From positions 1 through 64,000 of the forward strand of contig JADLHW010000024.1 in NCBI GenBank assembly GCA_020848615.1: a stretch of 64,000 nt of DNA. Reading direction: 5' to 3'. The position numbers and the translations under genes were made by a program. Positions within the stretch are counted from its first letter, which is position 1. Each line of letters begins with the position of its first letter. This document shows positions 22,637 to 27,876 of the stretch, piece by piece. The notes beneath the pieces are model-generated. The model ran no database searches, had not been told where the DNA came from, and saw nothing but the letters and a program-made list of their open reading frames with translations. Source of the stretch: Thermoleophilia bacterium. GTDB lineage: Bacteria; Actinomycetota; Thermoleophilia; Miltoncostaeales; Miltoncostaeaceae.

Positions 22637-22832
22637 CAGATGCAGGGCACCCGCGGGCCGCCGGCAGCTGGGTCACGTCACGCCCGACCGCCGTGTACCC
22701 GCGCCTGCCGCGCGGCTCGGTCCAGAGCGGAGGGCGCCTCATCCGGGCACCCCGGGGAGCCGGGCAAGGACATCCGTCCGGGCGATTCCCGCACGGTCCT
22801 CACCGTGCCGCACGGTGTCTCGACGCGTCATG

Positions 22833-22846
22833 CGAACGGCCGTTCG
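22833..22846. promoter_or_regulatory. SOS-box-like palindrome CGAACGGCCGTTCG, left copy
   Basis: A perfect 14-bp palindrome of the form CGAAC-N4-GTTCG, the layout of actinobacterial and Gram-positive LexA boxes. It sits exactly at the outer edge of the att repeat. No promoter or adequately placed start codon was identified for it, so function here is uncertain. Confidence 0.3.
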
Positions 22847-22863
22847 CGGAGCCACAACGCAAG

Positions 22864-22887
22864 AAACCCCCACACGTGCGGGGGTTT
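22864..22887 (-). terminator. Duplicated tRNA terminator hairpin in attL
   Basis: AAACCCCC and GGGGGTTT flank an 8-nt loop. It is the copy of the tRNA-Gly terminator carried by the att repeat, with one loop base changed. It would end minus-strand transcripts leaving the integrase. Confidence 0.6.
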
Positions 22888-22946
22888 CGAGGAGCGGGCG
22901 ACGGGGCTCGAACCCGCGACCTTCGGCATTGGGAAGGGCCGCGCGG

Positions 22947-24331
22947 TCATCGTGAGATCCCCGTGTCCTTCGCGATCTCGGGGATTTCGAGCTGTTCTGC
23001 GCCCGCGGGCCGCTCGGCGTCTGCGGCTTCGAGTGCCGCTTGCATGCGGCGGGCGGCCTCGGCGAGCTGGGCGTCGGCGTCGACCAGGTGGGAGTACGCG
23101 CCGGCGGTGATCTGCACGTCGGCGTGGCCCAGGAACCGGCTCACGACGATGAGCGGGACGCCCTGGGAGAGCAGCAGGGACCCGGCGCCGTGGCGCAGGC
23201 CGTGGAGGCTCACCAGGGGCTTGCCGTCGTGGTCGAGCAGGCCGGCGTCGGTGAGCGCGCGCTCCAGGGCCTGGGTGGGCGTGTCGGCGGCCATGGGCCC
23301 GCCGGTCGTGCCGGGCCACACGTAGCCGAGGGGGTCGGCGCGGTGCGCGACGACGCTCTGCGCGTACCAGTCGGTGAGCGCCCGGGTGAGGGTGTCGGTG
23401 ATGCGGATGGAGCGTGCATTGCGTCCCTTGGTGGGCTTCTCCATGCGCTTTCCGCCGCGGGTGCGGTCCTGCCAGACCGAGCGGCGCACCACGATCGCGC
23501 GGCCGTCCAGGTCGATGTCGCCCCAGCGCAGGCCGATCAGCTCGCCGCGGCGCAGCCCACATTCGGCGGCGGTGCGCAGCAGGCTGTGGATGCGGGGGTT
23601 GGGGGTGGCGGCGAACAGCTGCCGGAGCTCCGCGGGGACAGGACGCGTCGTTCGCCGCGGGGCCCGTCGTGGACGTCGCCGGCCAGGCGGAACCGTGCCG
23701 CCTTGATGCCCATCGCCGGGTTCGCGTCGAGCCTCCCCCACTCCACGGCCGCCGACAGCGCGGCGCGCAACACGGCCAGCGTCTTCTCAACGGTGCGGGT
23801 GGATGTGGCATTGGCGGCGACGCCGTTGACGAACTCCAGCACACGCTCGCGAGTGACCTCCGACAGTGGCAGATCCCCGATGGCCGGGCCGATCCGGAGC
23901 CGATAGGTCTCGTCGATGGTGTAGAGCGTTGATGGCGCGAGGCTGCGTTCCCGCAGTCGCAGGTAGCGCACGAAGAACTCCTGCACGGTCTCGATCTGCT
24001 CGGGTTCCGGGGCCGGTGGCCGGGCCCCGTAGCCGGCGGCCTGCAGGCGCCGTTTCTCGGCTCTGGCGGCGCGCACGGGGCCGGGGTGCTGCACCTGGCG
24101 GGTGCTGCCCGGGAAGTCACCGGGAACGGTCAGGAGGAACGGGCATCCGCAGCGTCGCCCGGGCTGCCGCTCGCTGGATGCGCGACAGCCGACGCGGTGG
24201 TTCTTGTAAAGACCGGGCTCGAGCGGTTCGCGCCATCCGCGGCGCTCCCGGGGTGTGTCCGCGTCGTCTCGGGGTGGGCCCATTGTGTGAGCCTCTCCGC
24301 CCTCCCCGTTCGGTTCGATGACGAGCGTCAT
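22947..24331 (-). pseudogene. Tyrosine integrase, frameshifted in the middle
   Basis: A phage-type tyrosine recombinase for insertion at tRNA-Gly. The N-terminal frame from ATG 24331 holds an arm-binding segment (YKNHRVGC and RRCGC) and a SAM-like core-binding domain (VQEFFVRYLRLRERSLAPST). The C-terminal frame, ending 22947, holds the catalytic domain with the arginine in AAECGLRRGELIGLRW, a lysine in KGRNARS, HGLRH, LGHADVQIT and the nucleophile tyrosine in GAYSHL. The frames join near 23634-23640: adding one C to the minus-strand CCCC run gives RRVLSPAELRQL, the normal linker into the catalytic domain. Restored length is about 460 residues. All catalytic residues survive, so the lesion is recent, an assembly error, or programmed frameshifting. 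The start overlaps the upstream HTH gene as ATGA. Confidence 0.8.
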
Positions 24332-24555
24332 GCCGACTCCCGCCACCAGCCCGGGGCGAGGCCCTCGCCGGGGTGATGGTGCCGGCCCCGTTCCCATGCG
24401 TCCAGCACGTCGGCGCGGATCACCAGGCGGCGGGCCACGTTGAACCCGCCGGCCCGGTACATCAGCCGCCTCGCGGCCCGCGGGTCGCGCATCCCGTAGC
24501 GGCGCTGCACGTCTGCGACGCCCAGCAGCGGCGGCAGGTCCTCCTGGCCGGTCAT
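24328..24555 (-). CDS. Small HTH protein of the integrative element (recombination directionality factor-like)
   Basis: A 75-residue protein beginning MTGQEDLPPLLGVADVQRRYG. The LLGVADVQRRYGMRDPRAARRLM stretch fits a winged-helix/MerR-like DNA-binding head, followed by FNVARRLVIRADVLDAWERGR, the usual last strand and helix of AlpA/excisionase-like proteins. The C-terminus is His/Gly-rich. The start overlaps the upstream small HTH gene and the stop overlaps the integrase start (both ATGA), so all three are co-translated. A role in excision or in controlling the integrase is inferred from context. Confidence 0.65.
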   Translation of the reverse strand: MTGQEDLPPLLGVADVQRRYGMRDPRAARRLMYRAGGFNVARRLVIRADVLDAWERGRHHHPGEGLAPGWWRESA

Positions 24556-26233: not shown

Positions 26234-26697
26234 TCAGTCTTCGCGCGCCCGCACAGCGGAGCAGAGCGAGCGGACGCTGCTGGCCCACCACTGGCGCCCG
26301 TCCCGCGCGGTCGGAACCCGGCGGCATTGAGCTGGCGAGCAATCTCCGCGTAGCCCAGACCCTCGCCCCGCATGGCGAGCACCCGGTCGATCACCGCCTG
26401 GTCGGCCTCGGGGGTTCCCTGGGGGCGCCCACGGCGCGGCGGCCGGCGCCTGGCTTCATCCAGGTCATCTTCCGTCATGCCGAGGCCGATCATGTTCCGG
26501 CGGAGTGTCAGCTCTCCCCGCGCCCCGCGACGGCGCAGCGTGGTGGGGTGCACCTTCAGGCGGCGCGCGGCCACGCTGACCGGAATCAGTCGCCCCTGAA
26601 AGGTGATCTGGGGACCGGCGGCGGGCCGATGGGTCGGCTGCTGAGCCGGAGCCGGCGGGGCCTCAACCGAACGGCCGTTCGCGGGGCCACAACGCAA
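26234..26697 (-). pseudogene. Recombinase-like HTH protein, frameshifted
   Basis: The minus-strand frame has an HTH (VSVAARRLKVHPTTLRRRGA), a linker RRGRPQGTPEADQ and AMRGEGLGYAEIARQLNAAG, which resembles the HTH tail of large serine recombinases. After LNAAG the frame changes to nonsense. The alternative frame continues VPTARDGRQWWASSVRSLC to a stop at 26234, exactly the expected LN-x-x-G-VPT-x-x-G-xx-W-x-x-S-V pattern. Adding one G to the GGG run there restores the gene. The N-terminus reaches into attR, so the true start is unclear. It is too short to be a recombinase and is more likely an element regulator. Confidence 0.5.
26668..26681. promoter_or_regulatory. SOS-box-like palindrome CGAACGGCCGTTCG, right copy
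   Basis: An identical copy of the 22833-22846 palindrome at the outer edge of attR. It lies directly upstream of the recombinase-like frame on the minus strand, where LexA control of an element gene would make sense. No clear -10 box was identified. Confidence 0.35.
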
Positions 26698-26698
26698 G

Positions 26699-26722
26699 AA
26701 ACCCCCACGCGTGCGGGGGTTT
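26699..26722 (-). terminator. Terminator of tRNA-Gly
   Basis: AAACCCCC and GGGGGTTT flank the loop, 5 nt past the tRNA 3' end on the minus strand. The hairpin leads into TTTCTTG, the closest thing to a U-tract in this window. Confidence 0.7.
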
Positions 26723-26727
26723 CGAGG

Positions 26728-26800
26728 AGCGGGCGACGGGGCTCGAACCCGCGACCTTCGGCTTGGGAAGCCGACGCTCTACCAGCTGAGCTACACCCGC
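26728..26800 (-). tRNA. tRNA-Gly (anticodon CCC)
   Basis: A complete 73-nt cloverleaf on the minus strand. The acceptor stem GCGGGTG pairs with CGCCCGC (one G-T pair), and the D-arm is GCTC-AGCTGGTA-GAGC. The anticodon stem TCGGC/GCCGA encloses TTCCCAA, giving anticodon CCC. The T-arm is GCGGG-TTCGAGC-CCCGT, and the discriminator is T. CCA is not encoded. The gene is the attachment site of the integrated element and lies downstream of the signal-peptidase-like gene on the same strand. Confidence 0.95.
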
Positions 26801-26838: not shown

Positions 26839-27876
26839 TCATGCGGTCCAGCAGGCGCCCACCTTCGTCCGCGCCTTGGCGATCGCGCTGTCGATGTTCC
26901 GGGACAGCGCGAGGGACTTCGCGCGGGTGACGCGGCCCCTGCGGGCCCCGCGGGCAAGCCGCTGGAGCTCCGCGCGCAGCGCCTTCGCGGGCGCGGCGCC
27001 GCACTCCGCCCCGAGGGCGCGGGCCGGGGCGGTCATCTTCCCCGCCAGGCCGGCGGCCGCCCGGCCCGCGGCGCGGTGCCTCGCGGTGAGGGACCTGGCG
27101 CACGACGCCTTCTTCGCGCACTTGCGGAGGGCGCCGGACGCGATGTAGGCCGGCGACGCGGAGCGGGTGAGGGTGACGAGGTACTCCGCGCGGGCGCGGG
27201 TGGGCGCGCCGGAGACGTCAAACGGCGTGACGGCCCCCGCGGGGGTGACGAAGCCGACGCGGGCGCGCGGGAACGCGATGGCCTCGGCGCGGCCGTCGAT
27301 CTGGGCGATGGGCACGCCGGGAGACGCCCAACTGTGGGAATCGCACGACGACCCGCGGTTGTCGCCCAGCACGTACACCTGGCCGGCGGGCACGACGACG
27401 GACGCCACGGTGTACGCCGGGGCCGTCGCGCCGGCGACCACGAACTCCGCGCCGTTCACGAGCACCTGGCCTGCGGCGACGTCGACGCGGTCGCCGCCGA
27501 CGGCAACGACGCGCTTGATGAACCGCTCGTCGGCGCCGGTGCCGCACTTCGCGCGCTGGGCGGGCGTGGGCAGGAACACCACCACGTCGCCGCGGGTCAC
27601 CGTCGCGGCGCGCTGCCGGTCGGTGATGACGACGTCGCCCTCCTTGATGGACGGCAGCATGCCGGCGCTGGGGACGTCGAACGCGCCGAAGCGGTCGGCG
27701 GTGGGGGTGCCCGCGACGACCCAGATGTCGCCGCGGAGGATCTGCGCGACGGCGGGATCGGCCGGCGGGGTCTGGGCGCCGGCGGCGCCCGCGCCCAGGA
27801 GGCCGGCGGCGAGGACGAGGGCGGCGGCGGACACGTGGCGCACCGTGCCGCGACGGAGGGGGGTTCGGGTCGTCAT
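26839..27876 (-). CDS. Signal peptidase I-like protein lacking the usual catalytic serine
   Basis: A 345-residue S26-family protein. Residues 10-35 form a hydrophobic segment ending AGAAGAQ, which looks like a cleavable signal and not a membrane anchor. The S26 boxes follow: VPSAGMLP at 68-75, FIKRVVAVGGDRV around Lys121 (general base), and VLGDNRGSSCDSHSW. In box B the serine that normally precedes Met is glycine (Gly72), so the nucleophile is missing; Ser70 two residues earlier is the only near substitute. A C-terminal extension of about 105 residues with CxxxxxC-type cysteines follows, absent from standard LepB. The ATG at 27876 has a TAGCCT box 7 nt upstream. It is either an inactive paralogue or an enzyme with shifted chemistry. 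Confidence 0.75.
   Translation of the reverse strand: MTTRTPLRRGTVRHVSAAALVLAAGLLGAGAAGAQTPPADPAVAQILRGDIWVVAGTPTADRFGAFDVPSAGMLPSIKEGDVVITDRQRAATVTRGDVVVFLPTPAQRAKCGTGADERFIKRVVAVGGDRVDVAAGQVLVNGAEFVVAGATAPAYTVASVVVPAGQVYVLGDNRGSSCDSHSWASPGVPIAQIDGRAEAIAFPRARVGFVTPAGAVTPFDVSGAPTRARAEYLVTLTRSASPAYIASGALRKCAKKASCARSLTARHRAAGRAAAGLAGKMTAPARALGAECGAAPAKALRAELQRLARGARRGRVTRAKSLALSRNIDSAIAKARTKVGACWTA

What the first reader, a model, noticed from the sequence alone, without database searches (positions are those of the whole stretch)
26839..27876. Signal peptidase I-like protein with glycine at the nucleophile position and a cysteine-containing tail
Box B reads VPSAGMLP. In LepB the nucleophile serine directly precedes the methionine, but here that residue is Gly72, while the general-base Lys121 and the GDNR-DS box are kept. 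The N-terminus looks like a cleavable signal, and about 105 extra residues with cysteines follow. It may be an inactive paralogue, use Ser70, or have a new role.
Basis: partly seen in the sequence, partly recalled or inferred. Interest (0 to 1): 0.62.

Follow-up and report, generated by a model that had tools for sequence, protein, structure and literature searches.

The report
Signal peptidase-like protein lacking its nucleophile
An actinobacterium carries, beside its normal signal-peptide-cutting enzymes, an exported look-alike whose cutting residue is replaced by glycine; it probably binds peptides without cutting them, a kind of protein already known from other bacteria.

Summary
ORF 27876..26839(-), 345 aa, has a clear S26/type I signal peptidase domain (Pfam 86 bits) with box B VPSAGM, so Gly72 sits where LepB has its nucleophile Ser90. 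Lys121 (base), Ser70, Ser177 and GDNRGSSCDS remain. It is not a sequencing error: the only other held genome of the genus has a full-length, 74% identical orthologue with the same GGC codon. The S26 part is under purifying selection (dN/dS 0.26) like the two normal paralogues (0.30, 0.25). Both genomes carry a tandem canonical lepB pair. AlphaFold2 gives a confident SPase fold; the best solved match is SipA of Streptococcus pyogenes, a known non-catalytic SPase-like protein (Z 18.2). The cysteine tail is predicted as four helices and was found only in this genus. Most likely this is a non-proteolytic peptide-binding paralogue, as in the SpsA/SipA precedents, in a new variant: only the nucleophile lost, likely cleavable signal, helical Cys tail. 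Catalysis by Ser70 is not excluded but unlikely. Its client is unknown. Nucleophile-less S26 paralogues recur in the class (5 of 132 domains).

The parts
26839..27876 (-). Signal peptidase I-like protein, 345 aa, with stop codon
27775..27876 (-). Predicted export signal, residues 1-34, A-x-A|Q cleavage-like site kept in the orthologue
   Evidence: sequence and alignment; hydropathy 1.87 at residues 15-33
27259..27699 (-). S26 domain, residues 60-206
   Evidence: Pfam match 63-200; model pLDDT block means 83-97 for residues 61-200
27652..27675 (-). Box B VPSAGMLP (residues 68-75); Gly72 codon GGC at 27661-27663 in place of the nucleophile Ser, Ser70 at the Ser88 position
27514..27516 (-). Lys121, general-base position
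27337..27366 (-). Box E GDNRGSSCDS (residues 171-180)
26842..27198 (-). C-terminal tail, residues 227-345: four predicted helices, Cys253/259/292/342
   Evidence: no Pfam or PDB sequence match

Best explanation
It is an exported, non-proteolytic paralogue of type I signal peptidase. Shown: the S26 sequence profile with the nucleophile Ser replaced by Gly while the Lys base and the rest of the active-site boxes are kept; fixed in both held genomes of the genus; purifying selection at the level of the active paralogues; canonical lepB pair present. Predicted: SPase fold and a four-helix tail. Inferred: the protein is exported, its own signal is cut by the canonical LepB, and its groove binds signal-peptide-like or Ala-x-Ala-containing segments of exported clients without cutting them, with the tail (possibly disulfide-pinned) holding or positioning the client. 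The client is not identified.
For: Gly72 in both orthologues, 74% identical. dN/dS 0.26 [0.16-0.37] in residues 48-232 against 0.30 and 0.25 for the two lepB pairs. The 35 active-site columns are 32 of 35 identical against 218 of 304 elsewhere (Fisher p 0.007; p 0.03 within the S26 domain alone). Canonical tandem lepB in G000 and G001. Top structural match SipA, Z 18.2, rmsd 2.6, 130 residues, a protein reported to lack peptidase activity, to keep the peptide cleft and to be needed for pilus assembly (PMC4049620, abstract and passages). Groove residues around box B and box D retained.
Against: The Lys, Ser177 and the GDNR box are all kept, which a long-dead enzyme might have lost; SipA lost both Ser and Lys. 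Peptide binding was not tested. The active-site columns were chosen by hand. Only two orthologues are known, so the conservation rests on one pair. The N-terminal segment may be an anchor rather than a cleaved signal.
Confidence: 0.62

Rival explanations
1. Displaced-nucleophile protease: Ser70, at the LepB Ser88 position two residues upstream, is activated by Lys121 and gives weak, specialised or self-directed cleavage.
For: Ser70, Lys121 and Ser177 are invariant in both orthologues. All five nucleophile-less S26 proteins of the census have Ser two residues upstream, although Ser is the commonest residue there anyway. Ser88 O-gamma lies at the active site in LepB and is implicated in stabilising the tetrahedral intermediate (PMC2259416 and PMC4704075, passages).
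Against: Recalled, not from a call: E. coli LepB S90A keeps Ser88 and is inactive. Ser88 normally serves the oxyanion hole. One of the five with Ser there (L004) has also lost the Lys.
Confidence: 0.1
2. Decaying, pseudogene-like paralogue of lepB without function.
For: Long branch (0.55) in the S26 tree and lost nucleophile; found only in one genus.
Against: Open frame in both genomes, dN/dS 0.34 [0.24-0.44] over the whole protein and 0.26 in the S26 part.
Confidence: 0.06
3. Water- or cofactor-assisted hydrolase or other new chemistry with Lys121 and the enlarged Gly72 pocket.
For: Lys121 and Ser177 kept with a Gly that opens space at the nucleophile site.
Against: No substrate, and no precedent in the passages of S26 papers read.
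Confidence: 0.05
4. Structural envelope protein in which the S26 domain is a mere scaffold and the helical Cys tail is the working part.
For: Tail under selection (dN/dS 0.37 [0.24-0.57]), three Cys kept.
Against: The S26 part is better conserved than the tail (78% against 67% identity), its active-site columns most of all.
Confidence: 0.12

Closest known systems
Canonical type I signal peptidase (LepB/SpsB, MEROPS S26A)
   Same: S26 profile and predicted fold; Lys base, Ser88-position Ser, GDNR-x2-S-x-D-S box
   Different: Nucleophile Ser replaced by Gly; likely cleavable signal instead of a retained anchor; Cys-bearing helical tail
SipA (LepA) of Streptococcus pyogenes pilus clusters, PDB 4n31 and 4k8w
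   Same: SPase fold without the nucleophile, best structural match
   Different: SipA has Asp and Gly for Ser and Lys; here only Ser is lost. The ten neighbouring ORFs scanned show no pilin or sortase
SpsA of Staphylococcus aureus
   Same: Inactive SPase paralogue beside an active one (PMC12445088 passages)
   Different: SpsA lacks two catalytic residues; this one lacks one and has the tail
Paralogue on G000:C40
   Same: Same genome, S26 domain with Ala at the nucleophile (NESAAM)
   Different: Also lost the Lys (VLRIAG), no long tail, 180-aa ORF

Membership tests
Type I signal peptidase S26A (active enzyme) | S26 sequence profile | tested here: met
   Pfam 86.1 bits, cut-off 22.9; TIGR02227 85 bits, cut-off 47
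Type I signal peptidase S26A (active enzyme) | Nucleophile Ser before Met in box B | tested here: not met
   Gly72 in both orthologues
Type I signal peptidase S26A (active enzyme) | General-base Lys in box D | tested here: met
   Lys121
Type I signal peptidase S26A (active enzyme) | Box E GDNR-x-x-S-x-D-S | tested here: met
   GDNRGSSCDS
Type I signal peptidase S26A (active enzyme) | SPase fold | tested here: met
   Predicted model only: matches to 4wvi Z 15.9 and 1t7d Z 15.2
Type I signal peptidase S26A (active enzyme) | N-terminal membrane anchor | tested here: inconclusive
   Hydropathy 1.87 against 1.96-2.19 in the canonical pair, with an A-x-A|Q site
Type I signal peptidase S26A (active enzyme) | Peptidase activity | not testable with these tools
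   needs an assay
SipA-like SPase pseudo-peptidase | SPase fold lacking the nucleophile Ser | tested here: met
SipA-like SPase pseudo-peptidase | Lys base also lost | tested here: not met
   Lys121 kept
SipA-like SPase pseudo-peptidase | Lies in a pilin/sortase gene cluster | tested here: not met
   Neighbours are a holin-like protein, argS, a SPOUT methyltransferase and an M48 peptidase (10 ORFs scanned); the one sortase found is on another contig, C86
SpsA-like inactive SPase | Two catalytic residues missing | tested here: not met
   one missing

The most novel reading that the evidence does not exclude
A genus-specific exported signal-peptide receptor: an SPase whose nucleophile was removed to turn the cutting groove into a holding groove, joined to a disulfide-pinned four-helix tail that handles the bound client; alternatively the same site works with Ser70 as a displaced nucleophile.
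Probability: 0.2. Interest if true: 0.6.

Novelty: new variant of a known kind. Interest (0 to 1): 0.33.

Why it matters
The non-cutting signal peptidase relatives met in the papers read come from streptococcal pili and staphylococci. This case shows such proteins in an actinobacterial class too, with the nucleophile lost in several paralogues (5 of 132 domains), and one kept under normal selection with everything but the nucleophile. It warns that automatic annotation would name it signal peptidase I (it passes the NCBIfam equivalog cut-off), and it offers a natural Ser-to-Gly variant for binding and trapping experiments.

Tried and rejected
Sequencing error or frameshift: rejected, same codon in an independent genome. 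It being the genome's only signal peptidase: rejected, two canonical genes on C92. Orthologues beyond the genus: in the class search (399 genomes; E cut-off 1e-22, only the best five candidates per genome scored) only G000 and G001 match over residues 1-345; in the phylum draw (396 genomes; cut-off 1e-25, likewise) only the own genome does. Two scans of genome contigs gave nothing and the G001 record; the viral scan with A1 gave none. Tail relatives: in 61 genomes only the two genus members at E 0.001 or better, next 0.0015; no Pfam family at E 10; no PDB sequence at E 10. Structural rows for the tail reach Z 9.5, under the level that the tool gives for chance helical bundles, so no fold kinship is claimed.

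The tools return no coordinates, so the Ser70-Lys121 distance could not be measured. The quick tree places the clade loosely beside other f1 proteins and the long-branched L004; the tool warns that long branches meet there, so no origin is claimed. Nine paper searches listed no Gly-nucleophile SPase and no inactive SPase from this class by title or start of abstract; this covers only the open-access library held and only listed papers. The E. coli S90A result, the numbering of some LepB residues and the names of MEROPS groups are recalled, not from a call.

Full report
What is there. Window 27876..26839 (-) encodes a 345-residue protein. Residues 63-200 match Pfam Peptidase_S26 with 86.1 bits (cut-off 22.9) and residues 64-203 the NCBIfam signal peptidase I equivalog with 85 bits (cut-off 47). 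Box B reads VPSAGM, so Gly72 replaces the nucleophile Ser; Ser70 is at the LepB Ser88 position, Lys121 at Lys145, Ser177 at Ser278 (alignments; E. coli numbering partly recalled). The N-terminus has a basic start, a hydrophobic run and A-x-A|Q. About 119 residues follow the domain.

It is real and kept. The only other held genome of the genus, G001, whose contig is LNFL01000152.1 (MAG Actinobacteria bacterium Ga0077560), has a full-length orthologue, 74% identical, with the same AGC-GCC-GGC-ATG codons for Ser70-Ala-Gly-Met. There too it follows argS and a holin-like gene. NG86 dN/dS is 0.34 [0.24-0.44] for the whole protein, 0.26 [0.16-0.37] for residues 48-232, 0.37 [0.24-0.57] for the tail, and 0.71 [0.34-1.26] for the first 47 residues; the two canonical lepB pairs give 0.30 and 0.25, holin 0.16 and argS 0.22. 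The hand-picked active-site columns are 32 of 35 identical against 218 of 304 elsewhere (p 0.007), and against 85 of 112 in the rest of the S26 domain (p 0.03). So it is not a decaying gene.

The genome has other signal peptidases. G000 holds four S26 genes: a tandem canonical pair on C92 (IPTGSM, FVKRV, GDNR), this one, and a 180-aa protein on C40 with Ala at the nucleophile and Leu at the Lys (NESAAM, VLRIAG). G001 has the canonical pair and this orthologue; only three S26 matches were found there (that genome is 84% complete).

How rare is it. Among distinct S26 domains in the loci fetched from the class (not a random sample: the best matches plus chosen weaker ones), 132 of 135 show box B; 127 have Ser and 5 do not: two Gly (this protein and its orthologue) and three Ala (L004, L104, L105). 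Two of the 127 with Ser have His or Thr in the Lys column. Of 32 S26 pieces from viral contigs, all 25 with the box aligned have Ser. No orthologue of the Gly form appeared in the class (399 genomes) or phylum (396 genomes) draws beyond the genus.

Structure. With 19 rows AlphaFold2 gives block means of 83-97 over residues 61-200. Foldseek ranks SipA of S. pyogenes first (4n31, E 6.9e-08) and the re-alignment gives SipA Z 18.2, SpsB 15.9, E. coli LepB 15.2. SipA's small size may help its rank. The tail is predicted as four helices in both models. A Cys at the Cys178 position and one between boxes C and D occur together in 36 of 129 S26 domains of the class, one alone in 9, neither in 83, with one lacking the box; this suggests a disulfide that is ordinary for these SPases. 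The tail's cysteines are the unusual part.

How it most likely works. SipA keeps the peptide cleft, has no detectable peptidase activity and is needed for pilus assembly (PMC4049620, abstract and passages); SpsA is listed as inactive (PMC12445088, passages). By analogy this protein is exported and binds a peptide segment without cutting. Binding, client and tail role are inferred. Unlike SipA it keeps the Lys base, and no pilus genes are among the 10 neighbouring ORFs scanned, so it is not filed as a SipA.

Ser70 as nucleophile. Ser88 O-gamma in LepB is implicated in stabilising the intermediate (PMC4704075 passage) and is modelled as touching the substrate (PMC2259416 passages). It is close to the site, so the idea is not absurd; but LepB S90A, which keeps Ser88, is inactive (recalled), and no distance could be measured here. 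I give it 0.1.

Verdict. Observation right; interpretation partly right; a new variant of the known non-catalytic SPase relatives, of modest interest until a client or an activity is found.

Noticed in passing
22825-22932 and 26660-26767: 108-nt direct repeats, 94% identical, the second overlapping tRNA-Gly(CCC) at 26726-26800(-); integrase pieces lie between. Looks like a roughly 3.9-kb element integrated at the tRNA gene next to the finding.
   Followed up: partly
22947-24397: Integrase N-terminal and catalytic parts lie in two overlapping ORFs in different frames: the integrase may be frameshifted.
   Followed up: no
L004:1417-1959 (G000:C40): Second S26 paralogue of the same genome that has lost both nucleophile and Lys; the ORF before it reads like an FHA/trypsin-like protease (from sequence).
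   Followed up: partly
L104 (G048:C5:61000-63700): Tandem cluster of S26 genes in another family of the class, one with Ala at the nucleophile (VPSTAM) and Lys kept.
   Followed up: no
L105 (G053:C28:207600-208700): S26 protein with IPSSAM, Ala at the nucleophile and Lys kept.
   Followed up: no
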